Shown: positions 8,667-21,801 of the stretch, in pieces
Numbering within the stretch: the stretch's first letter is position 1
Layout: each line of letters starts with the position of its first letter
IMG/VR virus record: IMGVR_UViG_3300002145_000119
Coordinates: 1-21,801 of that record
Origin: a virus
DNA length: 21,801 nucleotides
Direction: 5' to 3' (one strand)
Position numbers and translations under genes: made by a program
Notes under the pieces: model-generated
The model's input: only the letters and a program-made list of their open reading frames with translations
Told to the model about the DNA's origin: nothing
Database searches by the model: none

Positions 8667-9061
8667 TTGGTTTCTTCCTTGAAGTCTGTCTCTGTGATGT
8701 GAACGATGCGGACCTGCCAGACAGCACGCCCCCCTTTCTTGAGTGGCTTCTTGTGCCACCCGTGGATGTCGATTGTGCCTCCGGCCTGTAGCCAGCCGAG
8801 GGCGCGTGGTTCTGCGAGGATCTTCTTCTTCCGTGCGGACACGCAAGAGTACGAGGTTGTCTGAACGAGCAGGATGTCCTTGATAGGACGCCGAGCTCCG
8901 GGACGGAATGCGATGATGTCCGCGAAGTTGTAGAGGTCCTGGCGGATTCCCCTACCACCCCCCGGACGTGGTGCGAACCGGTTCCAAACTTCAACGACGG
9001 CCGGATCGTAGCCCTCATCTCGTAGCCACTGGAGGGATCGGGACGTTGGGCTAGGCGCCAT
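8663..9061 (-). CDS. Nuclease-like protein (possible PD-(D/E)XK fold) in the endonuclease I position
   Basis: The 132-residue protein matches a phage family of the pattern W.. F....R.DL..F.D..A......LLVQ.TS...V..R..KI......WL..GG.I..HGW.K. Here these are EVWNRFAPR, RQDLYNFADIIAF, DILLVQTTSYSCVSARKKKI and LGWLQAGGTIDIHGW. The D48 ... Q67-T-T arrangement is what a restriction-endonuclease fold would show, although the usual E-x-K is Q-x-T, so activity is uncertain. It lies between SSB and primase-helicase, where T7 has gp3 (endonuclease I, Holliday-junction cleavage), hence a likely DNA-processing role. A G-rich site (GGGGGTGG) precedes ATG 9061. Confidence 0.65.
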   Translation of the reverse strand: MAPSPTSRSLQWLRDEGYDPAVVEVWNRFAPRPGGGRGIRQDLYNFADIIAFRPGARRPIKDILLVQTTSYSCVSARKKKILAEPRALGWLQAGGTIDIHGWHKKPLKKGGRAVWQVRIVHITETDFKEETK

Positions 9062-9209
9062 GAAACCACCCCCTCACCCAGTCCGTCACCAGTGCGCATC
9101 CACCACAAACAACAAAGGCGGTACACACAGTGGTAACAAACAGGATGACAGGAATACCCGGGGGTTCCCCGAGCGTGGTCACGCATCCCCGTTTTGTGGG
9201 GAGCTTCAT
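9051..9209 (-). CDS. Small single-pass membrane protein, 52 aa
   Basis: A frame begins at ATG 9209, two bases after the SSB stop, and ends 11 bases inside the nuclease-like gene. It fills what would otherwise be a 150-base gap in a densely packed operon. The protein starts MKLPTKRGC, has one hydrophobic stretch IPVILFVTTVCTAFVV continuing into CGGCALV (residues about 19-41), and ends WVRGWFHGA. With a basic N-terminus and one helix it could be an inner-membrane protein; T7-like phages often carry tiny membrane proteins, but the function is unknown. There is no Shine-Dalgarno (TAA-CC-ATG junction). Confidence 0.55.
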   Translation of the reverse strand: MKLPTKRGCVTTLGEPPGIPVILFVTTVCTAFVVCGGCALVTDWVRGWFHGA

Positions 9210-9211
9210 GG

Positions 9212-9940
9212 TTAGTAGTCGCTCGCGCCGTCGGAACCCGAGCCGCTTTCCGTACCGTCTTCGAAGCCCGAGCCTTGCTCGACGAAGCCGTCCTCGACAA
9301 CGTCGAAGCCCTCAGCCGTTTCGTCGCGACCGCCACCTTGACGCGCCTGGATTACCTGGACCTTGCGGAGAGTGAGTTTCACGCCGCACCCGAGGGATGT
9401 GTTCCACCAACCACGAGCGTCGAAGATGATTCGGATCTCGGAGCCACCGCCGATCTCAACCGTGGTGGGTTGGAGGTTCGAGTCGAACAAAGCCGGCGAG
9501 AACTTGTACGTCTTGTTCTTCCGCTTCGAGAACACCTCGGCGTCCAGTCGGAAGTTGAACAACGTGTAGCCGGTGAGGTCCTCGGTCTCTTTGTTGTCCT
9601 CGTCGCGCTCGTACTCCTCGGTGTAGCCGACGTGACCGGAGTCCTTGGACTTGGACTTACCGTTCTCTTTGATGCTGTTCGCGATGTTTGCTTTCTGGAC
9701 AGCGTCGATGAGTTCGATCAGGTCCTGGGTCGCCTGGTCGTCAGTCTTCAAGCGGAGCAAGGTCGAGTAGCGCGGGCCTTTGTCGTAGCCCTCGATGTTG
9801 GGCATCGAAGGGCTGTTCAGGTGGGGGAACACGGCGATACCCGCCGACGTGATGATGTTCTTGATCTCGGGAGCCTCGTCCGTGGGGATGGGGCCGTCCA
9901 GGTCTTTCAGGGACTTGATGATCTTGGAGCTTTTAGCCAT
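9212..9940 (-). CDS. Single-stranded DNA-binding protein (T7 gp2.5-like)
   Basis: The 242-residue protein resembles T7 gp2.5-type SSBs (232 aa). The N-terminal half has SAGIAVFPHLNSPSMPN and YSTLLRL; the core continues with GYTLFNFRLDAEVFSKR, FSPALFDSN and IRIIFDARGWWNTSLGCGVKLTLRKVQVIQ, the strand pattern of the family's OB-fold with its typical 'gsGS.v.v....w.......Gv.l.l..vqv....' end. From about residue 205 the tail is acidic and Gly/Ser-rich and ends GASDY. In T7 the acidic tail with its terminal Phe contacts the polymerase; here the last residue is Tyr. It coats single-stranded DNA at the fork. It follows the RNA polymerase with a TGA-AAACCA-ATG junction and no Shine-Dalgarno. Confidence 0.9.
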   Translation of the reverse strand: MAKSSKIIKSLKDLDGPIPTDEAPEIKNIITSAGIAVFPHLNSPSMPNIEGYDKGPRYSTLLRLKTDDQATQDLIELIDAVQKANIANSIKENGKSKSKDSGHVGYTEEYERDEDNKETEDLTGYTLFNFRLDAEVFSKRKNKTYKFSPALFDSNLQPTTVEIGGGSEIRIIFDARGWWNTSLGCGVKLTLRKVQVIQARQGGGRDETAEGFDVVEDGFVEQGSGFEDGTESGSGSDGASDY

Positions 9941-9946
9941 TGGTTT

Positions 9947-12475
9947 TCAGTTGAAATAGTAGGTGGATTGCAGCACTTCCGAGGGATCGAGATCCCCGTA
10001 CTCGGGAAGGTCTGGGAGTGGTGAGCCGATCTGTTCCTCGAAGGACTGCTTCACAGTTCCGAGGATGTCGGTGGAGAACATGGACGCAGTCTCCTCGCGG
10101 AGTACAGTCCCAACCTCAGCCGCTGTTGCAGCGTGAGAGGTGTAACAGTCGTGGACAACGCCCAGGTGGGTGATGCCCCGGCCGCGAAGTGAGTTCACCG
10201 TGTTGACCAGGAGAGCAGAGTCCAGACTGTGGATGAAGTTCGGAGGAAGTCCGTTCGACTGCCTCTTAGTGTCCACCTTGTCGGTCTCTTCCCAGTAGTT
10301 ACGGTGAATGCGACAAGAGCGGCCGACCATCGTCGTTACCCTCTTGGCCTCGGAGTGGCGGTAGTCTTGTTGTACCCGGAACCCGCTTGGGGTGTCCCAG
10401 TACAGGCCGACTCCGGCGGCAGCGCCCAGAGACGCGGCCTTACGTAGCCAGTCCATCGCCTCGATCGACGAGCGGATCACAGTCCCCATCGCTTCCCACA
10501 GAACAGTGGCAAGCATGACGATGTGTGAGTTAGCGTCATCGAGCGGGGGGTTTTCCCAGCACTTGTTTTCGATCAGGTAGTCGTAGTACCATTCGTCTGT
10601 GTACTTGCGTGTCGAGTACCTGGTACCCCCGTACGGGAGGACCATAACAGGTCTCTTCGCAAGTGAACGGCTCAAGGAACCGTCCGTGATTGACAGCCAG
10701 TTCCGCGCAAAGCGTGGACCGAGCTCGTCGGCGTCCTCGGTCTTACCCCGAGCCCCGATGAATGCCCTACGCCGCCCCTCCATGATGTCGATCAGGTACT
10801 TACTAGCAACGTCGGCGACGTCCTGGTAAATGTCCTGGCGTTTACCGGAGGGAGTGACGTTAGTAGCATTAGCACCAGTACGGTCACGTAGTAGGAGGGA
10901 GTAAATCTGGAGTCCGGAGGACGTTGCGTCTTGGCTTACAGGAAGTGTTGATACAAGAGTTGTACCGTTTCTAGTACATTCCTCTAAGCGTTGCTTCTCG
11001 AAGCAAAACGCAAGGAACTGCCAGGGTTCAGATGCCTTTGTCCAATCTCGACAGTCGAGTGGATCGTTGGCAACACGCGTTATCATACCTAAGTTTTTCC
11101 TTACCCAGTCCACACGTTCGTTGAGCGGGGTCTTGTCCTCCCCAAACACGTTTGCTCCGTGTACATCGAGGGCCATCCGGGCAGCGTCGTTGTCGATCGG
11201 GAGACCTTCCGCGAACTGTAGGAGACCGCGGCCTAGGTCCGTACCCTGCGGGGACATACCGCACGTAGGGATGGGGTAGACGCGGGACCGGAAGTCCACC
11301 TTGTGTGGGTACCAGAAGGGCTGGTGTAGGAACGTACGGGCCGTATCATACGCGGCCGATACAATAGCGCGGTGGCTTGTGAGCTCGGTGTTACGCGTGT
11401 GAATGCGACGTGCGCGGCGCTTCCACTCCTTGACTTCCTCGCTTCCCTGAATCCACTCCCGAGGAGTGGGTGGTAGCTCGATCGGATTGACGGGCGGGAG
11501 CCCAGCAACCTCGTTACCCTCGTCTTTCCAGAGGTGGGCGAACGTCTCGAACACATCCCGGTTGACCGCCCACGGAGTTTCTTGGACCGTGTTCAGTGCG
11601 GCGTAGACTTTGGGGACGTTCTCGGCAGTGAGGTAGCCCCGGTGCGTCTTGGATGTCTTACAGATCGGCATCCGCCGGATGATGTTGGTGTGGTACCCGC
11701 CCACGAACTGCGACTCCCACGGGAGGGGAGGGATGACAGTGGGTAGGAAGGTGGCGACGTTGTTGCGACCAAACTCGGTGGCCTCTTTGAACCACGCCTC
11801 AGCCTCGGGTGTAGCAACTACGAGGAGTTCCTTCTCAAAGATCCGCTTACCCCCACGGCGCCGCATCTTGCTGATGCTCTTGATGCGGATGATCTTGGTT
11901 TTCCTCGCGACCAACTCGACCAGCACGGTACCGACCCGGAGGCGGTCGGCCCGTGTCCAGTCTTCACCCCACCCGAACGCTTTCACCGCCTCGGCCTTGT
12001 TCGCCATGAGGGTGAGGGACTTGTTCAGGTGCTTCCAGTTCTTGGACTTGTCCTTGACCGCCCGCTTGAGTTCGAGCCACGTGTCGGGTTCGTGCTCCGC
12101 GATGTAGCGGAACCTGGCCTCGGCACGTAGCTCGGACGCAATACGGAAGGCGATGGACCGGTAGTCCCTTACCTGTGAGAAAGAGTCGAGGATGATTTGA
12201 CACGCGATCAGTGACGCCTGTTCGTACCCGACCGTACGCAACTGGTCGAGCACGATGGGGAAGGTCTTGTTTCGGTTCTTGGACGCGGCTAAGTCCCAGT
12301 CAAAGAGCGCGGCACAGACATTGGAGACTGAGCTACGCAACAGGTGGTTGCCGGCTGGTGTTGTTGATTCGCGACCCATTTCGAGGGCGCGGCTGTACCG
12401 TGAATCGTAAGTTGCTTGACCCATCGACCGCATCAGGCTGTCGATTTCGTCTTGCGTCTTGGGCGTGTCAGTCAA
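9947..12475 (-). CDS. DNA-directed RNA polymerase, single-subunit T7 type
   Basis: The 842-residue enzyme (T7 gp1 has 883) has all core motifs: DFRSRVYPIP (394-403), motif A VSQDATSSGLQIYSLLLRD with catalytic D516, motif B RSLAKRPVMVLPYGGTRYS with K607 and Y615, LPPNFIHSLDS with H749, and motif C VVHDCYTSHA with D776. The C-terminus is STYYFN, where T7 ends in the essential FAFA 'foot'. It would transcribe the replication and structural genes after host polymerase makes the early messages. The start is TTG 12475, fixed by AGGAG six bases upstream and by the preceding stop; no better ATG exists until residue 15. I could not find a convincing conserved phage promoter for it within the window. 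Confidence 0.97.
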   Translation of the reverse strand: MTDTPKTQDEIDSLMRSMGQATYDSRYSRALEMGRESTTPAGNHLLRSSVSNVCAALFDWDLAASKNRNKTFPIVLDQLRTVGYEQASLIACQIILDSFSQVRDYRSIAFRIASELRAEARFRYIAEHEPDTWLELKRAVKDKSKNWKHLNKSLTLMANKAEAVKAFGWGEDWTRADRLRVGTVLVELVARKTKIIRIKSISKMRRRGGKRIFEKELLVVATPEAEAWFKEATEFGRNNVATFLPTVIPPLPWESQFVGGYHTNIIRRMPICKTSKTHRGYLTAENVPKVYAALNTVQETPWAVNRDVFETFAHLWKDEGNEVAGLPPVNPIELPPTPREWIQGSEEVKEWKRRARRIHTRNTELTSHRAIVSAAYDTARTFLHQPFWYPHKVDFRSRVYPIPTCGMSPQGTDLGRGLLQFAEGLPIDNDAARMALDVHGANVFGEDKTPLNERVDWVRKNLGMITRVANDPLDCRDWTKASEPWQFLAFCFEKQRLEECTRNGTTLVSTLPVSQDATSSGLQIYSLLLRDRTGANATNVTPSGKRQDIYQDVADVASKYLIDIMEGRRRAFIGARGKTEDADELGPRFARNWLSITDGSLSRSLAKRPVMVLPYGGTRYSTRKYTDEWYYDYLIENKCWENPPLDDANSHIVMLATVLWEAMGTVIRSSIEAMDWLRKAASLGAAAGVGLYWDTPSGFRVQQDYRHSEAKRVTTMVGRSCRIHRNYWEETDKVDTKRQSNGLPPNFIHSLDSALLVNTVNSLRGRGITHLGVVHDCYTSHAATAAEVGTVLREETASMFSTDILGTVKQSFEEQIGSPLPDLPEYGDLDPSEVLQSTYYFN

Positions 12476-12486
12476 GTTCTACTCCT
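12473..12486 (-). promoter_or_regulatory. Shine-Dalgarno that sets a TTG start for RNA polymerase
   Basis: AGGAG at 12482-12486 is followed after six bases by TTG ACT GAC. Among the genes here with a good ribosome site this is the only TTG start I could establish; a weak start codon could hold down polymerase synthesis. Confidence 0.7.
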
Positions 12487-12489
12487 GGG

Positions 12490-13743
12490 TTAGACGGGTA
12501 CGTATCCGGTGTTGGTGATCGTGCCGATGGTGACCGCGGTACCGTTGAAGGTCTGCTTCTGCTTCACAACGATCGGCGCGTTCTTGGCGAACACGTTGGT
12601 GAAGTTGAGGATCGGGTTTCCAATCACGATGATCTGGTTACCTTGGCAGACTGGCATGTCGAACACCACCTCTTCGAAGTCGACCTTGTACATCCCGTGG
12701 ATCTGCATGATCTGTTGGTCGCTGGCTGCGGACCGCAGAACGACACGCTTCAAACTGGCGTGACGCTCGTACGTATCTCCGGTACCTTCGTACCCTTCGA
12801 GGAGGAGACAGCCAGTGCTAAAGTCCTGCTCGTGTTTGAGGAGAGCCACGTCCTCAAGGATGACACTGTTACGTGCTGAGAAGAATGAGTACGTAAACGC
12901 CTCGCGAGGCATGTGCTTCGTACCCGAGCGGATACCTAAGACCCGGCGGAGGATGACGGGTAGACCTGGCGTGAAGTCGACGGTCGGGTTAGGGGTTTCA
13001 TGGACGTAGGCCGAGCCTGGAGCGACCTTCGAGATCGAGTAGTCATCTCGCGTCGTCGTTTGGACGTCCTGTCCACCGCAGTTCACGAACACACAATCCT
13101 CGACGAGGAGTGCGTGGGGGTTTGCCGGAGTCGCGCCGTTGATTCCGACGAGCGAACCGTAGATACCATGCTCTTCCAAGATGTCCTTGAACAGGACCTT
13201 ACGGAAGGTGACACCGTCGCGGATGCCGTACTGGCGGATACCCCACCGGTTCGTGTTGCGGATCTGACAGTCGTGCATCTCCCAGTTGTCGAAGTAGTCG
13301 TAGCTACCACCAGTTCCGGGGACGTGGACGAAGGAGCTCGTCGGGGCGGGGAGTTCAGTACCCGGTTCCACTCCGCCATCCCAAAGTGTGTAGGCAACCC
13401 CGCCGGACTGGGGCACGGTCCAGTGTCCTGCGTAGAAGTCGGCGGGAACAAAGGGTACGTACTGGTCGGCGTACTGATCCTCGACCGGGAACAGGATGCT
13501 CCACGGCAAGACCGAGAAGAGGTTGGACTCGATGGAGTCGATCGTGACGGCGGCGGGCGGGTAGGTACCAGCCTCGTATCCGGCCACACGCTGGAGTGCT
13601 TCGGTTGTGACACCGACGGAGGCACTGTAGGCAATCGTTGCCTCGGTCCAGTCAGTTGCTTGGAATGCCGAGACCATTTGGTTCTGTACCCCGAGGGCGG
13701 CAGCGACAAGTTCGGAAGTCGTGAGGTTTGCGTACGCGGTCAT
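12490..13743 (-). CDS. Right-handed parallel beta-helix protein of unknown role
   Basis: The 417-residue protein has an N-terminal part (about 1-105) with helices and Pro-rich segments that I do not recognise, then a beta-helix from about 150 onward: DNWEMHDCQIRNTNRWGI, VTFRKVLFKDILEEHGIYG, ALLVEDCVFVNCGGQD, VILEDVALLKH, ASLKRVVLRSA, VDFEEVVFDM. The repeating 'hydrophobic-x-hydrophobic-x-(D/N)-C/V-x-F' turns and the EEHGIYG step are typical of pectate-lyase-like folds used in phage tailspikes and in carbohydrate-active proteins. No signal peptide or membrane helix is seen. It is odd here, overlapping the integrase stop (ATGA) and preceding RNA polymerase, far from tail genes. It may be a receptor/exopolysaccharide enzyme, a lysogenic conversion gene, or something new. 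Confidence 0.75.
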   Translation of the reverse strand: MTAYANLTTSELVAAALGVQNQMVSAFQATDWTEATIAYSASVGVTTEALQRVAGYEAGTYPPAAVTIDSIESNLFSVLPWSILFPVEDQYADQYVPFVPADFYAGHWTVPQSGGVAYTLWDGGVEPGTELPAPTSSFVHVPGTGGSYDYFDNWEMHDCQIRNTNRWGIRQYGIRDGVTFRKVLFKDILEEHGIYGSLVGINGATPANPHALLVEDCVFVNCGGQDVQTTTRDDYSISKVAPGSAYVHETPNPTVDFTPGLPVILRRVLGIRSGTKHMPREAFTYSFFSARNSVILEDVALLKHEQDFSTGCLLLEGYEGTGDTYERHASLKRVVLRSAASDQQIMQIHGMYKVDFEEVVFDMPVCQGNQIIVIGNPILNFTNVFAKNAPIVVKQKQTFNGTAVTIGTITNTGYVPV

Positions 13744-14603
13744 TGGTTTTGTTGTTTGTTGAGGTTCAGGATTGCTTGCTGCTTCTCGTCGGAGGCAGCG
13801 TGTACGTATCGCATCGTCATCTGAATGTCGGAGTGTCCGAGTAGTTCGGCGATGACGTGAATGTTAGTGCCGGCCCTTGCAAGACGTGTGGCGAAGGTGT
13901 GGCGAAGTGCGTGAGGGACGAAGCCTTCCTCGTCGAGGTGGCTGAGTGTGCGAGCACGCTTCCAGACACGTGAGAACGTGGTCTTCGAGATGTCCGAGAA
14001 CGGTCCACGGTTTCCCGTACATAGGGTGAAGAGTTCGTGTCGACACGGGATGTCGCGGGGCTTCCCGGACTTGGAGTCAGGGATGCGGATCAGTGTGGCA
14101 TCGGTGATTGCGTTTGGGTCGGCTACCTTGATGTCCGTCCACTTGAGTTTCAGTAGCTCGGACAGGCGCATACCTGTCTCCCACAGTACGCGGATTGCGC
14201 GACCAACCTGGGTGTTGAGCTTGTAAGCACCCTCTCGGATCTTCTCGAACTCTTCGTCCGAGACCACCCGAGTGCGGCGCCCTTTCTCTTTCATCCAGAC
14301 AAGTCCGGGGATCTTGGGGTGAGGGTACTGCTCGAACGTGAACGCTGTTGCAATCACAGCAGACACGGCGGCGACCCTTCGGTTCACTGTTGCCGGAGAT
14401 AGACCGTACGTAGTCATCTTGTCGCGGAGCTCCAGTGCCTCGGATACCTTGAAGGACCGGACAGGAGCGCGAAGTCGTTTGGGGTCTTGTTCGAAGAACG
14501 CTAGAGCATTCTTCCGGGAACGTTTCCCGTCCTTCTGGTGACTCCAACGGGTCACGTACGTCTGTTCGATTGCTTGCTCTACTGTCCAGTCCTTGGTTTT
14601 CAT
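13740..14603 (-). CDS. int: Tyrosine recombinase integrase
   Basis: The 287-residue protein has the full catalytic set of phage integrases: R146 (WETGMRLSELLKLKW), K178 (DSKSGKPRDIP), H231 and R234 (HALRHTFAT), H257 (LGHSDIQMTMRYVH) and the nucleophile Y266. An N-terminal SAM-like core-binding domain (about 1-95, ATVNRRVAAVSAVIATAF) precedes it. All residues are present, so the enzyme should be active in cutting and joining phage and host attachment sites. It starts at ATG 14603, one base after the stop of the small membrane gene. Integrase upstream of RNA polymerase is known from some T7-like marine phages. No attachment site could be recognised beside it, because the flanking genes overlap. 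Confidence 0.95.
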   Translation of the reverse strand: MKTKDWTVEQAIEQTYVTRWSHQKDGKRSRKNALAFFEQDPKRLRAPVRSFKVSEALELRDKMTTYGLSPATVNRRVAAVSAVIATAFTFEQYPHPKIPGLVWMKEKGRRTRVVSDEEFEKIREGAYKLNTQVGRAIRVLWETGMRLSELLKLKWTDIKVADPNAITDATLIRIPDSKSGKPRDIPCRHELFTLCTGNRGPFSDISKTTFSRVWKRARTLSHLDEEGFVPHALRHTFATRLARAGTNIHVIAELLGHSDIQMTMRYVHAASDEKQQAILNLNKQQNQ

Positions 14604-14604
14604 T

Positions 14605-14769
14605 TTAGTGCCATCGTGGTGTGGTTGGAAAGGCTCCGTCGACAGTGTCCCCCGCTACGTACCAGTAGCAAGCAAGGACTGTCATGAACAACATGAGCGC
14701 GAAGAAGATGAGGGCGTCCCACTCGGGTGGTTCGCCATTTGTTGACTCGTCATACGCTGAGTATGTCAT
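14605..14769 (-). CDS. Small single-pass membrane protein, 54 aa
   Basis: The frame starts at ATG 14769, overlapping the sigma-like stop as ATGA, and ends one base before the integrase start. It reads MTYSAYDESTNGEPPEWDAL, then one strongly hydrophobic helix IFFALMLFMTVLACYWYVAG (residues about 21-40), then DTVDGAFPTTPRWH. The acidic N-terminus and lack of a signal cleavage site suggest a single-pass inner-membrane protein. The function is unknown; its place between a regulator and the integrase could fit exclusion or lysogeny-related membrane proteins, but this is speculation. Confidence 0.65.
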   Translation of the reverse strand: MTYSAYDESTNGEPPEWDALIFFALMLFMTVLACYWYVAGDTVDGAFPTTPRWH

Positions 14770-15401
14770 GAAAGCACCGGGGCGCCGTACTGTTTGATCC
14801 AATCCCGGAGTTTGTGGTATGCGGAGGACAAGAGGCGATCGACCCTGGTAGCGGAGACACCCAGTGCGATAGCGGCCTTGTTGCGGTTGGCCGCAAGGGC
14901 CGGGATGATGTGGACCTGGTAGAGCGCCGCCCGCTCCATTGCAGACAGCGAGGTGACAGTCGCGATCCACCTGTGAAGTGTACCACCAGTTCCCTTCTCG
15001 TTCTGCTCATTTTGCTCGGCGATATCGGAAGGTCCTGGGCGCGGGTCCTCCGGGTGCATGTCCTCGGGTAAGTCCTCGGGCCGTCCCTGCTTTGCCATGT
15101 ACCGCTTCGTCATGCCCCGACGTTTGACACCGGTGATGTCCCCGTCCTCCGCAAGGATGGTAAGGGCCTCCTCGTACGCGTACTTCCAGACGTAGGCGAG
15201 TAGGTTTGTACCTGCGGTCAGGTCCGCCTTGTTTGCGGCGATTGTGATCGCGGTGAACACCGCCGACGAGATCGCATCGAACGTCGGTTGGGTGTAGTGC
15301 TTCCGGATATGCATGATGAGCTTAGCCGGTATGTTTACCTTGAACGCGGCCTCGATCAGGTCATTCGGGGTGTCGGCGCGTAGTTGTGGAAGGGAGTTCA
15401 T
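14766..15401 (-). CDS. Sigma-70-like (ECF-type) transcription factor
   Basis: The 211-residue protein has two parts joined by a charged linker. Residues about 150-203 match sigma region 4: LSAMERAALYQVHIIPALAAN, RNKAAIALGVSATRVDRLL and SSAYHKLRDWI, a helix-turn-helix of the 'iA..LGvS...V...l..A..kLR' form that reads -35 DNA. Residues about 30-105 resemble a reduced region 2: FDAISSAVFTAITIAA, TNLLAYVWKYAYEEAL, then a basic VKRRGMTKRYMAK. The linker 107-137 is Pro/Glu/Asp-rich. It could redirect host RNA polymerase or act as a simple DNA-binding regulator. Region 2 is weak, so promoter melting is uncertain. The ATG 15401 overlaps the upstream TGA. Confidence 0.65.
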   Translation of the reverse strand: MNSLPQLRADTPNDLIEAAFKVNIPAKLIMHIRKHYTQPTFDAISSAVFTAITIAANKADLTAGTNLLAYVWKYAYEEALTILAEDGDITGVKRRGMTKRYMAKQGRPEDLPEDMHPEDPRPGPSDIAEQNEQNEKGTGGTLHRWIATVTSLSAMERAALYQVHIIPALAANRNKAAIALGVSATRVDRLLSSAYHKLRDWIKQYGAPVLS

Positions 15402-15637
15402 TGTGAGTTCCGGTGTTGGTTGGTCTTACGGGACTTGTGGGCACGTTTGTTTTTCTTACGAGTGATGGCGTACCACTCGTCGACCTGCGCCGCCAACCCG
15501 TCGGGGAAGTCGGGGACGTCGTACGCAGACTCGCGTTTGTCGTAGTCAAAGAATCCCTTGAAGAGTCTGGATGGGTCGAAGTAACCTCGGAAGAGCGCGG
15601 TGATGTCGGACCACAGTTGCTTGAGTTTGGTGAACAT
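15398..15637 (-). CDS. Hypothetical basic protein, 79 aa
   Basis: I do not recognise this protein. It starts at ATG 15637, one base after the previous stop, with GGAGGTGG in front, and ends overlapping the sigma-like start. It begins MFTKLKQLWSDITALFRGYF, an amphipathic stretch with Phe pairs (FRGYF, FKGFFDY), and ends with a strongly basic tail RKKNKRAHKSRKTNQHRNSQ that could bind nucleic acid or acidic lipid. The open frame reaches further upstream, but that part overlaps the neighbouring gene and has no ribosome site. Confidence 0.65.
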   Translation of the reverse strand: MFTKLKQLWSDITALFRGYFDPSRLFKGFFDYDKRESAYDVPDFPDGLAAQVDEWYAITRKKNKRAHKSRKTNQHRNSQ

Positions 15638-15638
15638 T

Positions 15639-15878
15639 CTAATCCACCTCCGCTTCGGCGAGGGCTTCGTCGCAGATGTCGTCGTTCTCGTCCAGGAGGC
15701 CGGCGCCACGGAACACCATGTACTGTCGGTGGTACGCGCCCTGGAGGTGTGAGAGTGTACCAGACTTGGCAAGATCGGAGAAGAGTTCGAGGACTTGACG
15801 AGGACCGAGCTCACCAGACTCGTAGTCCATGATTCGGTTGACGATGTTGGTGGCGTTGTTGTCGTTTGTGTTGCTCAT
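15639..15878 (-). CDS. Conserved small phage protein (DUF7417-like)
   Basis: The 79-residue protein contains IMDYESGELGPRQVLELFSDLAKSGTLSHLQGAYHRQYMVFRGAGLL, split here as the pattern 'YE.GEL....vleLF..L...G....LQG.Y.R......aGl'. Short proteins with this pattern are very common in phages of many kinds and have no known function. The end is acidic (DENDDICDEALAEAEVD). It starts at ATG 15878 with a TGA-ACCAACC-ATG junction and no Shine-Dalgarno. Confidence 0.75.
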   Translation of the reverse strand: MSNTNDNNATNIVNRIMDYESGELGPRQVLELFSDLAKSGTLSHLQGAYHRQYMVFRGAGLLDENDDICDEALAEAEVD

Positions 15879-15885
15879 GGTTGGT

Positions 15886-16497
15886 TCAGATTTTGCTGGG
15901 GTTGGTGAGTGCTTCGAGGAACGTGGAGATGTAGAAGGGTAGCTTGCGGCCGCTTTGTTTGGTCAAGGCAAGGATGCCGGACGCGGACGCCGGGACGTCA
16001 CCCTCGTCAAAAGTAGATCCGCTCGGGCAGGTGTACACAGTCTTGGTTCGACGGGCTCGGACTGTGACGTACTCGTGATCGTCGCCGTACTCGACTACGA
16101 ATCCATCCGGCGCCTCGGTGTCCTGCTTCGGCGCATCACACGCCTGCTTAGGCGCATCACACGCCTGCTTAGGCGCATCACACGCCTGCTTCCACTGTCC
16201 CGGACGTGGGTGGAGGTAGCCTTCCTCGATGGCGCCCCGGTTTACTAGGGTGCGGCGGTTCGCTGGGCTCGTAGGTGCTTTCACGTACCAGACTCCTTCC
16301 AAGGCGTCGTAGGAACCCTTGAGCGAGAGCGCAAGAGGGTACTGACCACACCTATCAATGACCGGGCGTGCGCCTTGGTTTGCGTCCGAGTACCAATGGT
16401 TGCGCCATTCAATGGCGTGTTGGAAGTCGTCGAAGACGAGGATTGGAAACTCGGGTGAGAAGACCTTAGCTGGTTTCGGTTTGTTTTCGTTGTACAT
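15886..16497 (-). CDS. Hypothetical protein with triple KQACDAP repeat
   Basis: I do not recognise this 203-residue protein. The N-terminal part (VFSPEFPILVFDDFQHAIEWRNHWYSD...) looks globular. A linker around residues 102-125 holds the heptad KQACDAP three times, then KQDTEAP. The C-terminal part includes DHEYVTVRARRTKTVYTCPSG and KLPFYISTFLEALTN. Three regularly spaced Cys in the repeat could form disulfides or bind metal, or the block may just be a recent slippage product. It begins at ATG 16497 with a GGTACCACC leader and no proper Shine-Dalgarno. Confidence 0.7.
   Translation of the reverse strand: MYNENKPKPAKVFSPEFPILVFDDFQHAIEWRNHWYSDANQGARPVIDRCGQYPLALSLKGSYDALEGVWYVKAPTSPANRRTLVNRGAIEEGYLHPRPGQWKQACDAPKQACDAPKQACDAPKQDTEAPDGFVVEYGDDHEYVTVRARRTKTVYTCPSGSTFDEGDVPASASGILALTKQSGRKLPFYISTFLEALTNPSKI
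16122..16191. repeat. 21-bp tandem repeat, three near-perfect copies
   Basis: The 19 bases gcgcatcacacgcctgctt recur at 16131, 16152 and 16173, each separated by two bases, giving a 21-bp period; a partial copy precedes them. It is in frame and produces the KQACDAP repeats. The near identity at DNA level shows recent expansion. Confidence 0.9.
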
Positions 16498-16505
16498 GGT
16501 GGTAC

Positions 16506-17096
16506 CTACTTGGTGGTGGTTTGGTTGTTGGCTTTCAGGATGATTTGTTCGACGATGTCGTCGAGACTGACGAGCATACGAGCGGCGCCGTACATGAGGT
16601 TTGCGAAGTCGTTCGCCTCTTGGATGGAGAACTCCACCTCGTCGTCGGACTCGCGGGTCCTGCTTGTGATGTAATGGTAGCGTTTGAGGAGCTCGGAGGC
16701 AAGTTCCAGGACGGTGAACTCAACGTCGATCGGCTCGTTGATGGTGATATGTGCGGTTGGAAGCACGGCTTGGAAGGTGGGCTCGGACATTGGTTGGTTG
16801 GTGGTGTCGGTGGTGTCGGGGACAACAATACGGAAACTCCGCGCGCAACAAAAGGTGCATACTGATCCGGCGGTGTTCGAGGATTTGGTGCGGTCGTAGT
16901 TTCTGAGTTGGACAGTACCCCTACGTGGGCAGTGTTTCGCGGTACAGATGAGTAAGTCCCGCTCATCCTGCGCCCAGCGGTCCGTCTGTGCTCGCACGCC
17001 GTCGTCGAAAAAGTCGTAGCTAGAGTTGCATTGCTCTCGGTTGCCCTTACGGATCTCGTTCGCCTTGGAGACGGTGATGGTTGCCTTGGTTTGCAT
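16506..17096 (-). CDS. Hypothetical protein with Cys cluster, 196 aa
   Basis: I do not recognise this protein. The N-terminal half carries a possible zinc site: LLICTAKHCPRRG (C51, C56) and SVCTFCCARSF (C80, C83, C84). The C-terminal half is acidic and helical (DVEFTVLELASELLKRYHYI..., DDEVEFSIQEANDFANLMYGAARMLV). The start ATG 17096 follows the previous stop as TGA-AACC-ATG. Met103 (ATG 16790) has the SD-less leader CCAACCAACCAATG typical of several starts here, so the C-terminal half could also be made separately, or the frame may be two fused genes. Confidence 0.65.
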   Translation of the reverse strand: MQTKATITVSKANEIRKGNREQCNSSYDFFDDGVRAQTDRWAQDERDLLICTAKHCPRRGTVQLRNYDRTKSSNTAGSVCTFCCARSFRIVVPDTTDTTNQPMSEPTFQAVLPTAHITINEPIDVEFTVLELASELLKRYHYITSRTRESDDEVEFSIQEANDFANLMYGAARMLVSLDDIVEQIILKANNQTTTK

Positions 17097-17100
17097 GGTT

Positions 17101-17895
17101 TCAGGTGGCGGCGGTAGTGGCGGTGGCGGTGTGGTACGAGTTGTCGATCTCGATCTCGATCTTCGTAAGGTCCGGTACGTCCGGGTACTTGTCGCTCTGG
17201 TTGGGAGTTTGGTTGTTGTAGGTGAAGTTCACGGAGCGTGTGTCGAATCCCCACCCATCCTTGGTGTCGAGTCGCCAGATCGTAAGGACCGATCCGTCGG
17301 AGTACACGTAGTCGGTCCATACCCGGCGGCTGGCGCGGTGGATGGAGTAGTAGGGGACGTCTCCGACTTGCTCCCACGTACCGATTGGTCCAAAGTAGTC
17401 GTTCAGGAATCGGTGGACACTCTCCGCTTGGGACAGCGCAAGCGGGTTGTCCTCGACGAAGTGTGCAATGAAGAACTCGAAGCGATCATGGGAGGTAGAA
17501 TCCCCGACCATGATTTCAATGTCCATGCCATTTGCGTCAGCTATGGTCACCCTTCCGGTTTTTATGTCGTGGAGGTCTTGCAGTGCGCTGAGTCCCCCTG
17601 GCTGGAGCGGCATGACGTCAACGAGTTGGCGGTGTCTGCGCAGAAGCGCAGCGGCGGATGCCCACAAGTTGTGGACGACGCCTTGGAAGGAGTCTGGGAT
17701 GAAGCAACCCACACCGCATCGGTTTCCGTTGCCTTGGTTGTAGTAGAGACATTGGGCTTCGATGTGGTCATCGCTGATACACCGCGTACCGTTGTTGCGG
17801 GTGAGGAGGGCGTTCCGGAAGGAAGGGATGGTCCACCCGTTTGTGAGTACGTGCCGTTTCGGCGCTTGCGGGTAGCTTATGAATGAGATGTCCAT
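17101..17895 (-). CDS. Paralogue with CGVGCFIPD motif plus C-terminal extension, 264 aa
   Basis: Residues 1-150 are clearly related to the next gene upstream: ALLTRNNGTR, QCLYYNQGNGNRCGVGCFIPD, QLVDVMPL, LSALQDLHDIKTGRV and HDRFEFFIAHFVE align with that protein in order. The family 'CL....G..C.vGCliPD ... LQ.iHD' is widespread in phages and has no known function; its conserved Cys residues suggest metal binding or redox chemistry. Residues about 150-264 are an extra domain (VWTDYVYSDGSVLTIWRLDTK, VNFTYNNQT) ending in a Thr/Ala run. The start follows a 16-bp repeat and has no Shine-Dalgarno. Confidence 0.75.
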   Translation of the reverse strand: MDISFISYPQAPKRHVLTNGWTIPSFRNALLTRNNGTRCISDDHIEAQCLYYNQGNGNRCGVGCFIPDSFQGVVHNLWASAAALLRRHRQLVDVMPLQPGGLSALQDLHDIKTGRVTIADANGMDIEIMVGDSTSHDRFEFFIAHFVEDNPLALSQAESVHRFLNDYFGPIGTWEQVGDVPYYSIHRASRRVWTDYVYSDGSVLTIWRLDTKDGWGFDTRSVNFTYNNQTPNQSDKYPDVPDLTKIEIEIDNSYHTATATTAAT

Positions 17896-17937
17896 GGTTC
17901 AGATGGTGGTGGGTTCAGATGGTGGTGGGTTCAGATG
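17896..17937. repeat. 16-bp tandem repeat in the leader of the 264-aa gene
   Basis: The unit ggttcagatggtggtg occurs at 17896 and 17912 with a partial third copy to 17937. On the minus strand this is CCACCACCATCTGAACC repeated up to the start codon. The unit contains the TGAACC-ATG junction sequence, so it looks like a duplicated start-region cassette. Confidence 0.85.
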
Positions 17938-18011
17938 TCGAGGTACCCTGTCCGATCAAGCGCCGGACTTGAGAGGATACGCCACACGGCGCAGAGTATT
18001 TCCAGAATCAT
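17931..18011 (-). CDS. Possible 26-residue leader peptide or micro-protein
   Basis: An ATG at 18011 overlaps the upstream TGA as ATGA and opens a frame of 26 codons: MILEILCAVWRILSSPALDR then TGYLDI and TGA. It lies in the 112-base gap between the paralogous pair and its stop falls at the 16-bp repeats. The N-terminal half is hydrophobic. The coupling overlap is the only support; it may be chance. Confidence 0.35.
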   Translation of the reverse strand: MILEILCAVWRILSSPALDRTGYLDI

Positions 18012-18499
18012 TGCTCGGTGGTTTCGTGCTCGGTGACGCAGTGCTCGGTGAAGAACCTGAACCGCTCATGGGTGTCGAGTTCTTCGCCATGCTTCATGTC
18101 CTTGATTGTGAAGAAGTATCCGTCATTGTCCGGGATGTCCACCCGATTAGTGTTCGTGTCGTGGATGGATTGGAGGGCCGTGAGTCCACGTGCTGCCCGA
18201 AGGTCGGTACGGTTGTTCAAAAGCGGCATCTTGTCCACGAGGTCCGGGTGGTCTTTGAGCAAGGCGCCAACACCGCCCCGGTTTCTCATCCCTGGATGTC
18301 CGTCCGGGATGAAGCATCCGACCCCACAGTGGTTGCCTTCCTCGTCCTCGTACAGACAGTGGGTGACGAGTTCACTATACGCCCGCTTCCCCTTGTTTCG
18401 GGTGAGTAGCGTTTGGAGGAACTGTTCCTTGGTGAGTCCGGGGCGGAGGACGTACCGTTTGAACGGCTTGTGGTTGTAAATGAATGAAGCAAGATGCAT
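18008..18499 (-). CDS. Paralogue with CGVGCFIPD motif, 163 aa
   Basis: The protein begins MHLASFIYNHKPFKRYVLRP and contains LLTRNKGKRAYSE, HCLYEDEEGNHCGVGCFIPD, LVDKMPLL, GLTALQSIHDTNTNRVDIPD and HERFRFFTEHC. It is the compact version of the family also present in the next gene downstream. The function is unknown; the 'CxVGCxIPD...LQxxHD' pattern recurs in many phages. The start is firm: AACAGGAGAAAACC precedes ATG 18499, a 19-base leader identical to that at 20153. Confidence 0.8.
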   Translation of the reverse strand: MHLASFIYNHKPFKRYVLRPGLTKEQFLQTLLTRNKGKRAYSELVTHCLYEDEEGNHCGVGCFIPDGHPGMRNRGGVGALLKDHPDLVDKMPLLNNRTDLRAARGLTALQSIHDTNTNRVDIPDNDGYFFTIKDMKHGEELDTHERFRFFTEHCVTEHETTEQ

Positions 18500-18537
18500 G
18501 GTTTTCTCCTGTTAGTTGTTTTCGGCTTCGTGGGGGT

Positions 18538-18555
18538 TCACTACTACTACTACTA
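18538..18555 (-). other. Six consecutive in-frame stop codons (TAG x5, TGA)
   Basis: The acidic 246-aa gene ends TAG, and the same frame continues TAG TAG TAG TAG TGA without a break. Each codon is read directly. It may be a trinucleotide expansion, or a guard against stop-codon readthrough. Confidence 0.9.
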
Positions 18556-19293
18556 GCCTCCGATGTAGAGGTCAGGGCAGCAGCGAACAGGGTGTCCGTC
18601 GAGTCGGGCGTAGAACTCCCCGCCTTTCCACTCGCCCGCGCCGTTGTCGTCCAGGTCCTCGGCGAGGGTGTGTGTCGGGGAGGACGAGTACCCGGTACTG
18701 TATCGCCCTTCCTCGTCCGCGCTCTCGCCGGGTACGATCTCTGGGCGGGGCTCGCAGTCGCCGAACTCCGGGAAGCTCGGGGTCAGTCGGTCCAGTTCTT
18801 GGTCGTCGTCGTCCGGGTCCAGCCACTCAACGTACCATCCGAGCTTCCAGTCGAGAAACCCGCTCTCGGCGAGGTCATCGAGCTTGTAGACCTCGGGCGA
18901 TCCGTAGTTTGACGATCCACGAGGGTCACCCCCATAGCGTTGGATCGTCACCGCGACGAGTACGTCCTCTGACGAGTACAGCCAGTCGCACTCGTCCGGG
19001 GAAGTGAACACGGTGAACACGAAGTCACGGTTGAAGTCGTTCTCGCAGTTATACGTGTTATCCCTGACCTGCTCGACGTACTCGGGCAGGTCACAGGCGA
19101 CAGGGATTCGCAGGTCATTGTCCCATCCCTCGCCGTCGTTTTCGGGGGGCGACTCGATGTCGTCTAGGTCGGGGAGTTCCAGTGGTTCCCCGAGGGTACG
19201 GGACAGGAACTCTTCAGTGTTGATGAGTGCCCCGAAGAGGTCAGTGCAGCCGTCTTCAGGCGTGAGGATGAGCGGGCGGTTTTCTTGTGTCAT
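18553..19293 (-). CDS. Large acidic hypothetical protein, 246 aa
   Basis: I do not recognise this protein. It starts at ATG 19293 with TAGGAACC in front; the frame is open upstream, but that part is a Thr/Arg-rich shadow of the next gene. The chain is very rich in Asp and Glu with few basic residues (LELPDLDDIESPPENDGEG, WLDPDDDDQELDRL, LAEDLDDNGAG) yet has aromatic-rich segments (FLDWKLGWYVEWLD) that suggest a fold. There are several Cys, including a terminal RCCPDLYIGG. Acidic early proteins of T7-like phages can mimic DNA (T7 Ocr blocks restriction enzymes), but no homology is claimed. Confidence 0.75.
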   Translation of the reverse strand: MTQENRPLILTPEDGCTDLFGALINTEEFLSRTLGEPLELPDLDDIESPPENDGEGWDNDLRIPVACDLPEYVEQVRDNTYNCENDFNRDFVFTVFTSPDECDWLYSSEDVLVAVTIQRYGGDPRGSSNYGSPEVYKLDDLAESGFLDWKLGWYVEWLDPDDDDQELDRLTPSFPEFGDCEPRPEIVPGESADEEGRYSTGYSSSPTHTLAEDLDDNGAGEWKGGEFYARLDGHPVRCCPDLYIGG

Positions 19294-19336
19294 GGTTCCT
19301 ACTACGGGTGGGTGTCGGGAATGTTTCGGGATTCTG

Positions 19337-19597
19337 CTAGTTTTCTTCGTCCTCGTCCTCGTCCTCGTCGTGCTCGTGCTCGCACTCGTCGTAGTCGTGC
19401 TCGAACCGGGGCGAGAGTTCGTTGGCGTCCAACATGTCAGCCACATCGGCGCTCGACATGTAGCTCAACGCTGCTAGGAGTAGGTCTCGGGCGTTGAACC
19501 CGTACCCGGCGTCGACTAGACCTAGTGCGAACGTGCGCGGCGCTTCTTCGAAGGCTTTCTGACGTTCCATATACGATTCACAGCTTTGGCAGGGCAT
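19337..19597 (-). CDS. Small protein with poly-acidic tail, 86 aa
   Basis: The protein reads MPCQSCESYMERQKAFEEAP, then ARDLLLAALSYMSSADVADML and DANELSPRF, ending in a run of Asp, Glu and His (HDYDECEHEHDEDEDEDEEN). The CxxC near the start may bind metal. 'YMS..DV.DML..NEL.PR' is a pattern seen in small phage proteins of unknown role. The start ATG 19597 has AAGGAAACTAA before it, after a (CCAA)4 stretch. The tail is coded by a 6-base repeat (about 19340-19370). Confidence 0.75.
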   Translation of the reverse strand: MPCQSCESYMERQKAFEEAPRTFALGLVDAGYGFNARDLLLAALSYMSSADVADMLDANELSPRFEHDYDECEHEHDEDEDEDEEN

Positions 19598-19634
19598 TTA
19601 GTTTCCTTGGTTGGTTGGTTGGTTTCTACACCTC

Positions 19635-20153
19635 TTAGATGAAGCACACCTTGACTTCCGCTTCGCGGACCAGTACCGCCTCTTGAGAGAAGGCAGTACG
19701 GAGTCGCTCGGCGAGCCGAAGAGCGCCAGCTTGGAACTCGCTTGCTTCACGGACAGCCGAGACGTTGACAGACGGTTCTTGGATCGGGCTTCCGTCGGCG
19801 TGGCTCCAGATACCGCGAGCTTCCGTGACTGTGCAGCCAAATGGGAAGTACAGTGCAGCCAAGTCGCAGATGCCGTGGAGTGAGCGCCGCTTTGAGAGTT
19901 CAATCACTGGGCCGAGTTGCCGGAGGTATTCGTGGACTTCCGCGCAGTTCCCGTAGTCCTCGTCTGTTTCGTATCCGTGGGTGCTGCCAATGTGGTCGAT
20001 GACGTCTCGGGCAGCACGTTTTCCGTAGGCGCTCAGAGTGTTCGAAAGTTGTGCCACCTTGTGGGCGAGTTTGGCGCCTTCCAAGGCGTGGTCCCGGAGC
20101 GGGTTCGGAACTGTCAAGCCCACGGTGATGTCGTACTGGATCATTTTCTGCAT
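19635..20153 (-). CDS. Hypothetical early protein, 172 aa
   Basis: I do not recognise this protein. I start it at ATG 20153 because AACAGGAGAAAACC precedes it; the longer open frame overlaps the upstream gene. It begins MQKMIQYDITVGLTVPNPLR, then a mostly helical middle (LEGAKLAHKVAQLSNTLSAYGKRAARDVIDHIG), a Cys/His-bearing GNCAEVHEYLRQLGPVIEL and LHGICDLAALYFPFGCTV, and a helical end (ALRLAERLRTAFSQEAVLV). It looks soluble, with no membrane helix. Confidence 0.75.
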   Translation of the reverse strand: MQKMIQYDITVGLTVPNPLRDHALEGAKLAHKVAQLSNTLSAYGKRAARDVIDHIGSTHGYETDEDYGNCAEVHEYLRQLGPVIELSKRRSLHGICDLAALYFPFGCTVTEARGIWSHADGSPIQEPSVNVSAVREASEFQAGALRLAERLRTAFSQEAVLVREAEVKVCFI

Positions 20154-20166
20154 GGTTTTCTCCTGT

Positions 20167-20715
20167 TTAGGCGCTGTGGTAGAGGATGCCGGAGTCGATG
20201 ACAGTCTCGACATTGTGTTCGTAGCAATCTTTCACGAAGCGACGTTGTTCCGTGGGAAACACTCCGTAGGTGGCGTGGTACTTGACTTGACCGTAGAGCT
20301 CGGCCCAGAGAACTTTGCGAGCATCGTCGCCGTCGATCTTGGACATTGCGTAGTGTGCCACACGTGTTTCGCCTTCGGCGTCAAACTCCGCGTTCAACTC
20401 CAGATGGTGCCAGTCGTGCCAAGCACGGGCAAGCCAGTTCATCCAGCTTTTCTCCCAGATGGTGTTGTCGCTGTTTGCCACGTCGACAGGGATGATGCGC
20501 TGGTAGACCGGACCGTTTGGCTTCACAATCCGGCCTGCATCGAGGGTGCCGCCGCTGCTGTGGGTGTTGATTCTCAGGTACGCTTCCTTCAGCTCCTTTA
20601 GGGAGGAAGGTGCGCCACTGGTCAAGGCGAGGCCGAGAATGTTTTCCCGAGTGCAGAGTTCCTGGATTTGTGATGCCAGGTCCCAGACTGCATTGTCAAA
20701 TGTGACGTGCGGCAT
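20167..20715 (-). CDS. Conserved phage protein with HDWHH motif, 182 aa
   Basis: The protein starts at ATG 20715 with AAAGGAGCC upstream. The core pattern LARAWHDWHHLELNAEFDAEGE followed by LWAELYGQVKYHATYGVFPTEQRRFVKDC resembles a family found in many phages and some proteobacteria ('raWHDw.H......f...GE......Q.........lraEi.GQv.Y....g.fP.dQr.F'), whose role I do not know. The clustered His, Asp and Glu residues suggest a metal site. It is the second gene to be transcribed from the right end, so an early host-takeover role is plausible. Confidence 0.75.
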   Translation of the reverse strand: MPHVTFDNAVWDLASQIQELCTRENILGLALTSGAPSSLKELKEAYLRINTHSSGGTLDAGRIVKPNGPVYQRIIPVDVANSDNTIWEKSWMNWLARAWHDWHHLELNAEFDAEGETRVAHYAMSKIDGDDARKVLWAELYGQVKYHATYGVFPTEQRRFVKDCYEHNVETVIDSGILYHSA

Positions 20716-20716
20716 G

Positions 20717-21007
20717 TTAGGCTCCTTTGATGGTATGGGACTCAAGAGCGACGGCGGCGGCAAGCGCACTGTCCAGAGTCTCGGTGGCGGCGAGTGTGAT
20801 CGTACCGTTGGTGTGCCAGAACGGGCGGAAGTAGTTCGCGGCCGCTTTCCCGAGTTGGTCGGCGATGGCCACCCACGCTTCCTCCTCCGCCTTGGTGCCG
20901 GAAGCGTGCTTCCGAATATCGGCGGCAAAGCCTACCGCGAAAGCCGACACCGTATGGGTGTTATCGGCGTCGTTCGTTTTGACTGATACGGAGAAGTGAA
21001 TGTCCAT
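20717..21007 (-). CDS. First early gene, hypothetical protein, 96 aa
   Basis: I do not recognise this protein. It begins MDIHFSVSVKTNDADNTHTV, has the hydrophobic AFAVGFAADIRKHA and an Ala-rich helical rest (EEEAWVAIADQLGKAAANYF, LDSALAAAVALESHTI). AACAGGAATCACAAATG provides a moderate ribosome site. It ends one base before the next gene's start. As the first gene after the leader it should be made earliest after infection. Confidence 0.75.
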   Translation of the reverse strand: MDIHFSVSVKTNDADNTHTVSAFAVGFAADIRKHASGTKAEEEAWVAIADQLGKAAANYFRPFWHTNGTITLAATETLDSALAAAVALESHTIKGA

Positions 21008-21029
21008 TTGTGATTCCTGTTTCGAGGTT

Positions 21030-21074
21030 CCTTTTCAAAGGCGCCGGATCAAGCGTGCAGCAACATCCGGCGCC
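21030..21074 (-). promoter_or_regulatory. 10-bp perfect stem-loop followed by TTTGAAAAGG
   Basis: GGCGCCGGAT pairs with ATCCGGCGCC across a 15-base loop (21040-21074). On the minus strand it is followed directly by TTTGAAAAGG, 22 bases before the first ribosome site. It could be a 5' UTR structure, a processing site, a weak terminator or a degenerate boxA-type element. Confidence 0.6.
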
Positions 21075-21075
21075 G

Positions 21076-21093
21076 CTAGGCTACCAAGCCTAG
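21076..21093 (-). promoter_or_regulatory. 7-bp perfect stem-loop
   Basis: CTAGGCT and AGCCTAG pair across a four-base loop. It is the middle of three consecutive hairpins. Confidence 0.55.
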
Positions 21094-21100
21094 TGACAGG

Positions 21101-21137
21101 GGCACGGTTCCTACATTTCGCCATCGGTCACCGTGCC
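21101..21137 (-). promoter_or_regulatory. 8-bp perfect stem-loop
   Basis: GGCACGGT and ACCGTGCC pair across a 21-base loop. Together with the two neighbouring hairpins, nearly all of 21040-21137 is base-paired, which suggests a structured RNA. Confidence 0.5.
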
Positions 21138-21350
21138 ACAGACCTTATACTGCCTCTCCACACTTGCGGCGCATGATTTCGGTCTGCCGTTTCTACTAGC
21201 CGTGCCTTTGACCCGTGAGCCCCCCTCCCGTTGCCAGCGGGACAGTGACGTGCGGCCAAGTGTCTCCCAAGCGTAGCCGGGCGCTCCCTCCACGGGATTG
21301 CAAGCGACGTACTCCGACGGTCCCTATGGGACGGGCGACTAGTGTAATGA

Positions 21351-21378
21351 GTTTTCAAAGAGCGCGGGGCTTTCCCCG
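21351..21378 (-). promoter_or_regulatory. Hairpin plus boxA-like element A
   Basis: The minus strand reads CGGGGAAAGCCCCG, a 5-bp stem with AAAG loop (21365-21378), directly followed by CGCTCTTTGAAAAC (21351-21364). The latter closely resembles boxA of rRNA antitermination sites (E. coli TGCTCTTTAACA; Bacillus leaders with GTTCTTTGAAAACT). Hairpin before boxA is the order of rRNA leaders. Confidence 0.5.
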
Positions 21379-21576
21379 TCACGGTCCTGTATTCGATCTA
21401 GTGTTCGCTTTATTTCCGGCTACTTCGATTTCTTTTCGGTGTCCCGGTTTGGGATCTTTCCGTTTCGAAGTGTAGGTGCCGTGTCCTTTGGTGGCCGATT
21501 GTGCGTCCGTCACCGAACCATAAAGGTCTCAGTCGTGACGAGTGCGCGGCCGTCGAAGGACGTGAGCGGACTTGAT

Positions 21577-21608
21577 CGGATTGTCAAAGAGCGCGGCGGG
21601 CTTTCCCG
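21577..21608 (-). promoter_or_regulatory. Hairpin plus boxA-like element B
   Basis: CGGGAAAGCCCG (21597-21608) forms a 4-bp stem with AAAG loop and is followed after two bases by GCGCTCTTTGACAATCCG (21577-21594), almost the E. coli rRNA boxA GCTCTTTAACAAT. Confidence 0.5.
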
Positions 21609-21801
21609 TCGTCATGACCCCTTATTCGGCGCGGGCCTCCGAATATTTCCGACATTCTCGGATTTTTTCGGGGAGGTCGCCGGATTGTAAGGGAGCGGGT
21701 CACGTCGGGCTTTCCCGTCGTCATGACCCCTTATTCGGCGCGGGCCTCCGAATATTTCCGACATTCTCGGATTTTTTCGGGGAGGTCGCCGGATTGTAAG
21801 G
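21597..21801. repeat. 109-bp-period tandem repeat at the window edge
   Basis: Bases 21597-21692 and 21706-21801 are identical over 96 positions at an offset of 109. The second copy is cut by the window edge, so more copies may follow. Each copy contains the cgggctttcccg hairpin, a 7-bp inverted repeat TATTCGG...CCGAATA (21623-21645 and 21732-21754) and a poly-T run. Sequence near 21351-21378 is a diverged relative of its start. Confidence 0.9.
21681..21717 (-). promoter_or_regulatory. Hairpin plus degenerate boxA-like element C
   Basis: The same CGGGAAAGCCCG hairpin (21706-21717) is followed by CGCTCCCTTACAATCCG (21681-21697), a weaker copy of element B. A further partial copy ends at the window edge (21790-21801). 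Confidence 0.4.

What the first reader, a model, noticed from the sequence alone, without database searches (positions are those of the whole stretch)
14766..15401. Sigma-70-like factor in a phage that has its own T7-type RNA polymerase
T7-like phages normally shift transcription with the single-subunit polymerase alone. A clear region 4 and a weak region 2 suggest that this phage also redirects host polymerase, perhaps for lysogenic or early promoters. The gene is directly upstream of a membrane protein and the integrase.
Basis: partly seen in the sequence, partly recalled or inferred. Interest (0 to 1): 0.6.

Follow-up and report, generated by a model that had tools for sequence, protein, structure and literature searches.

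The report
Sigma-like gene in T7-like phage
A temperate relative of phage T7, which carries its own RNA polymerase, also carries a gene whose C-terminal half looks like the DNA-reading part of bacterial sigma factors, in an operon with the integrase where related phages often keep a different kind of regulator.

Summary
The 211-aa ORF at 14766-15401 (-) is a real gene, and the phage does encode a T7-type RNA polymerase. The sigma reading holds for the C-terminal half only. Residues ~143-208 match sigma region 4: 17.5 bits against a region-4 profile, reached by 0 of 20,000 shuffles; profile alignment probability 74, best shuffle 1.5 of 150; a single-sequence model of that half (pLDDT 72.5) draws sigma chains in 12 of its first 14 PDB rows, although no E-value is significant. 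Region 2 is not distinguishable from chance. All scores are below curated cut-offs. No sequence relative was found in phages, plasmids, viral or bacterial contigs. The gene overlaps its neighbours by ATGA on both sides, in an operon with a 54-aa membrane ORF and the integrase. In 30 of 52 integrase loci surveyed a MarR-like regulator lies near the integrase; this protein is not MarR-like. Best reading: a diverged ECF-sigma-like regulator of the lysogeny operon. Whether it binds host polymerase is untested.

The parts
14766..15401 (-). 211-aa sigma-like ORF (the finding)
14778..14975 (-). sigma region-4-like domain, residues 143-208, with helix-turn-helix
   Evidence: hhalign probability 73.7; region-4 profile 17.5 bits on the C half; PF04545 hit at 14805-14876; model pLDDT 72.5, four helices
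15147..15326 (-). N-terminal helical part, residues 26-85, in the place of region 2; homology not demonstrated
   Evidence: TIGR02937 alignment begins at residue 31; region-2-only test not significant
14605..14769 (-). 54-aa single-pass membrane ORF, overlaps the sigma-like stop by ATGA; lower coding score than its neighbours
   Evidence: hydropathy maximum 2.22 over 19 residues; ATGA at 14766-14769; coding score 0.148
13740..14603 (-). tyrosine integrase, ATG one base after the membrane ORF's stop
   Evidence: Pfam PF00589 E 8.7e-27; sequence
15398..15637 (-). 79-aa ORF of unknown function whose stop overlaps the sigma-like start by ATGA
15639..15878 (-). DUF7417 gene; matches in the phage collection are all from Streptomyces phages
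   Evidence: PF24192 E 2.7e-12; 14 of 14 records
9947..12475 (-). T7-type single-subunit RNA polymerase

Best explanation
The gene encodes a strongly diverged, ECF-sized sigma-70-like regulator: an N-terminal helical domain, a polar linker and a C-terminal sigma-4 domain. It is made from the lysogeny operon and probably sets transcription of the integrase operon, and perhaps of the promoter region before the phage polymerase gene, by placing its helix-turn-helix on promoter DNA in partnership with the host RNA polymerase. It would take the role that a MarR-like repressor has in many other temperate T7-like phages. Shown: the gene, the operon overlaps, the sigma-4-like domain by sequence statistics and predicted fold, the absence of a MarR-like gene in the held 21.8 kb. 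[quoted passage not shown]
For: TIGR02937 (sigma70-ECF) is the only one of 18,950 NCBIfam models reported at E <= 10, and its alignment runs collinearly over residues 31-200 = model 20-163 of 165. A profile of 39 bacterial sigma factors gives 16.4 bits; 0 of 20,000 whole shuffles and 1 of 20,000 half-preserving shuffles reach it. Among 30,857 stop-to-stop ORFs from the loci held only a bacterial sigma factor scores higher with the whole-sigma profile. Region 4 alone: 17.5 bits on the C half, 0 of 20,000 shuffles. hhalign C half probability 74.1, best of 150 shuffles 1.5. The C-terminal model has four helices; its Foldseek PDB list starts with an ECF sigma (6dv9_F), 12 of the first 14 rows being sigma chains, and the best BFVD hit is named 'sigma factor 70, region 4 type 2'. 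ATGA overlaps on both sides and integrase co-orientation. [quoted passage not shown]
Against: No public model passes its cut-off. Region 2 is not detectable, and in the hhalign global alignment the query lacks the acidic/Gln motif of region 2.2 and the Asn, Asp and Arg of the helix after it (the role of these residues is recalled). No Foldseek E-value is below 0.4; VIA-align Z for sigma chains is at most 4.8 and the first row, a snRNP chain, has 5.5. PF04545 alone gives similar or better bits to ORFs of six other T7-like phages, at least three of them MarR-like, so that model does not separate sigma-4 from other helix-turn-helix proteins. No relative was found, so conservation could not be used.
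Confidence: 0.5

Rival explanations
1. Sigma-4-only DNA-binding regulator: the protein uses a sigma-derived helix-turn-helix to bind operators or activate promoters (as the RinA/ArpU-type phage regulators are thought to do; recalled) and does not act as a sigma factor, the N-terminal half being an unrelated oligomerisation or effector domain.
For: Only the C-terminal domain has significant similarity. In 34 of 52 surveyed integrase loci a winged-helix protein of one of two kinds lies within 1.5 kb of the integrase start.
Against: Protein length and domain order are those of an ECF sigma, and the TIGR02937 alignment crosses the N-terminal part. NCBIfam reported no other regulator family at E <= 10.
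Confidence: 0.3
2. An unrelated helix-turn-helix protein whose resemblance to sigma region 4 is convergent.
For: Low absolute scores; PF04545 also rings on MarR-like and other ORFs in other T7-like phages; homeodomains and other helical proteins appear in the fold lists.
Against: Similarity extends over the whole four-helix region 4, including the helix before the HTH and the C-terminal A..KLR helix; shuffle controls; sigma chains lead the Foldseek lists.
Confidence: 0.13
3. An inhibitor or appropriator of host RNA polymerase: a sigma-4 mimic that occupies the beta flap or displaces host sigma to shut off host transcription.
For: The sigma-4-like domain without a recognisable region 2 would suit it. 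T7-like phages use polymerase inhibitors (recalled).
Against: It lies in an operon with the integrase rather than among the first early genes.
Confidence: 0.05
4. A diverged member of the MarR-like regulators that accompany the integrase in many temperate T7-like phages.
For: Neighbouring position in the operon.
Against: -1.5 bits against the MarR profile, reached by 9,034 of 20,000 shuffles; hhalign probability 0.3; the chain ends after the last helix, without room for a wing.
Confidence: 0.02

Closest known systems
ECF (group 4) sigma-70 factors, NCBIfam TIGR02937
   Same: size, domain order, sigma-4-like C-terminus
   Different: far below the cut-off (12.6 against 42.9 bits), no recognisable region 2
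MarR-like regulator / integrase operon of temperate T7-like phages (LUZ100; Pasto has an HTH gene in the same place)
   Same: DNA-binding gene co-oriented with the integrase, both before the phage polymerase gene
   Different: other protein family; here a membrane ORF lies between the two and a 417-aa gene between integrase and polymerase
Phage-encoded sigma factors such as those that alter Bacillus sporulation (PMC9429907; search listing and abstract start only)
   Same: sigma-like gene in a phage
   Different: the named sigma hits in BFVD come from other phage groups by their names; here the phage also has a T7-type polymerase

Membership tests
sigma-70 family (ECF type) | sigma region 4 (-35 helix-turn-helix domain) | tested here: met
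   region-4 profile, 0 of 20,000 shuffles; hhalign 74.1 against at most 1.5 in 150 shuffles; Foldseek leaders are sigma chains; no public cut-off reached
sigma-70 family (ECF type) | sigma region 2 (core binding, -10 recognition) | tested here: inconclusive
   790 of 20,000 shuffles do as well; hhalign 0.7; PF04542 no match
sigma-70 family (ECF type) | curated cut-off of TIGR02937 | tested here: not met
   12.6 against 42.9 bits; it is therefore called sigma-like and not filed as a member
sigma-70 family (ECF type) | binding to core RNA polymerase and promoter-specific initiation | not testable with these tools
   needs pull-down and in vitro transcription
MarR-like lysogeny regulators of T7-like phages | match to the family profile | tested here: not met
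   -1.5 bits; hhalign 0.3
RinA/ArpU-type phage regulators | match to their NCBIfam models | tested here: inconclusive
   no NCBIfam model other than TIGR02937 reported at E <= 10; that the library holds these models is recalled
temperate T7-like phages | T7-type polymerase with integrase upstream, T7-like replication genes and portal | tested here: met

The most novel reading that the evidence does not exclude
A temperate T7-like phage in which the lysogeny decision is run by a sigma factor instead of a repressor: the phage sigma directs host polymerase to the integrase operon, the adjoining 54-aa membrane protein holds it in check as a tiny anti-sigma factor, and the single-subunit polymerase drives the lytic branch, so that two phage-encoded transcription specificities compete.
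Probability: 0.12. Interest if true: 0.7.

Novelty: new variant of a known kind. Interest (0 to 1): 0.42.

Why it matters
How temperate T7-like phages choose between lysis and lysogeny is only beginning to be worked out, and the proposed switch is a MarR-like regulator (passages of PMC10134795). A lineage with a sigma-like protein in the same operon would show that the switch can be built from a different kind of transcription factor, and would give a phage with two transcription specificities of its own. Five literature searches for T7-like phages or Autographiviridae together with sigma factors (listings only, apart from LUZ100 passages) listed no paper whose title or abstract start reports this combination; the full texts were not read.

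Tried and rejected
Sequence relatives: none in phages, viral contigs, genome contigs or PDB sequences (the four PDB rows at E 0.78-1.9 are enzymes); the one plasmid hit (E 0.2) lies over an annotated hydrolase gene and is taken as chance. DUF7463, a weak Pfam match, could not be placed: no hit in 200 genomes or the controls.

MarR homology rejected. ECF-like promoter pattern not enriched. Sigma-70-like promoters and terminators not above expectation in 9000-21801. No Rfam family at gathering threshold and no tRNA.

The full-length single-sequence model has pLDDT 43; its fold search is not used as evidence. VIA-align gave middling Z only.

Corrections: one of 40 sigma ORFs (L291) was a wrong frame and was dropped; the result did not change (16.3 to 16.4 bits). 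In one search the region-4 row was a stale file, and the region-2 and region-4 alignments failed; neither is used. In the block-shuffle controls single shuffles scored high: 16.9 and 17.8 bits on the whole-sigma profiles, 22.4 for an N-half shuffle on region 4, 21.3 for a whole block shuffle on region 4. The region-4 test on the whole protein gives 14.6 bits, reached by 1 of 20,000. The 52-locus survey was not purged of near-duplicates; 18 of the 52 had neither winged-helix type near the integrase, among them L002, the locus with the closest polymerase.

Full report
What was checked. The window is a whole virus record of 21,801 bases. It carries, on the minus strand, a T7-like module: portal, dNMP kinase, exonuclease, endonuclease VII, DNA polymerase, primase/helicase, ssDNA-binding protein, RNA polymerase and integrase. 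The ORF 14766-15401 has the phage's own codon usage in its frame and in none of the five others.

Sigma similarity. Pfam and PHROGs give no sigma family for the protein. NCBIfam gives one family at E <= 10, TIGR02937 sigma70-ECF, E 0.08, 12.6 bits against 42.9, aligned collinearly over residues 31-200; the six-frame scan of 50 records with the same model did not report it. In the window, PF04545 matches in one place only, inside this ORF (13.1 bits, cut-off 24.1); PF08281 and PF04542 do not match. To calibrate, sigma genes were taken from 14 bacterial genomes and built into a profile. With 40 rows the protein scores 16.3 bits; after one wrong-frame row was dropped, 16.4 bits, and none of 20,000 shuffles reaches that (best 10.2), one of 20,000 when the two halves are shuffled apart (16.9). 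Split models locate the signal: region 4, 17.5 bits on the C half, 0 of 20,000; region 2, 1.6 bits on the N half, 790 of 20,000. Profile alignment agrees: C half probability 74.1, best shuffle 1.5 of 150; N half 0.7, best shuffle 6.1 of 150. Of 30,857 ORFs in the loci held, only a sigma factor on a Planctomycetota contig scores higher with the whole-sigma profile; with the region-4 profile a 67-aa ORF also scores higher, and MarR-like proteins come close. PF04545 rings at E <= 0.01 in 7 of 50 T7-like records, this one included, and four of the other six score higher in bits; it rings in 0 of 50 further records. A helix-turn-helix alone is therefore not decisive; the neighbouring helices and the lack of a wing are what favour sigma-4.

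Fold. The full-length single-sequence model is poor (pLDDT 43). The C-terminal 85 residues alone give pLDDT 72.5 with helices at 2-24, 28-45, 47-54 and 58-79. Foldseek against PDB: best hit ECF sigma L of M. tuberculosis, E 0.78; 12 of the first 14 rows are sigma chains by description or by the usual chain and entry naming of these complexes (the latter recalled). Against BFVD: best hit a phage 'sigma factor 70, region 4 type 2', E 0.41, and four of the next five rows are named sigma factors. None is significant alone. VIA-align: best Z 5.5 for a snRNP chain, sigma chains up to 4.8.

Setting. The upstream ORF, the sigma-like gene and the 54-aa membrane ORF overlap by ATGA at 15398-15401 and 14766-14769, and the integrase starts one base after the membrane ORF's stop. 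[quoted passage not shown] Pasto has an HTH gene there. Survey of the loci held: 233 have a T7-type polymerase, 78 of these an integrase within 8 kb upstream; 52 of the 78 have at least 700 bases before the integrase, and of these 30 have a MarR-like protein within 1.5 kb, 4 another winged-helix type, 18 neither. No ORF within 6 kb upstream of the polymerase in these loci scores above 12.9 bits with the sigma profile, and the top one is MarR-like. The window has no match to either winged-helix type, and the sigma-like protein scores -1.5 bits on the MarR profile. The record holds about half of a usual T7-like genome (size recalled), so a MarR-like gene elsewhere is not excluded.

Relatives. 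The lineage is isolated: the best RNA polymerase match is 36% identical (L002), and no relative of the sigma-like protein was found. L002 has an ORF ending in a hydrophobic stretch before its integrase but nothing sigma-like upstream of it (read by eye).

Conclusion. A sigma-4-like domain is likely (about 0.85, my estimate). A working sigma factor is about even odds at best, because region 2 cannot be recognised. The finding is a new variant of a known arrangement: a transcription regulator beside the integrase of a temperate T7-like phage, here of sigma type.

Noticed in passing
15639-15878 (-): DUF7417 gene next to the sigma-like gene; all 14 records matched in the phage collection are Streptomyces phages (42-44% identity in the rows read), a hint of an actinobacterial host, unusual for a T7-like phage.
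   Followed up: partly
21594-21801: Tandem repeat, period 109, 1.9 copies, 99-100% alike, at the right end of the record; may be a terminal-repeat or assembly feature.
   Followed up: no
starts at 15878, 16497, 17096, 17895 (-): Several early genes have no purine-rich ribosome-binding site but C/A-rich stretches ending in ACC before the ATG; others have AGGAG.
   Followed up: no
17101-17895 and 18008-18499 (-): Two neighbouring early proteins look like paralogues (shared CGVGCFIPD stretch, read by eye); the second matches phrog_17693, E 2.4e-5.
   Followed up: partly
12490-13743 (-): 417-aa protein between integrase and RNA polymerase with a weak tail-spike match (E 0.013) and no phage match; an unusual place for a spike or depolymerase.
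   Followed up: partly
16122-16191: In-frame 21-bp tandem repeat giving QACDAPK repeats in an early protein.
   Followed up: no
L011, L012, L031, L055, L075, L191: A second winged-helix-like type (S-[PSD]-E-T-x-R-[RK]-A-V motif) stands before the integrase in some T7-like phages in place of the MarR-like regulator.
   Followed up: partly
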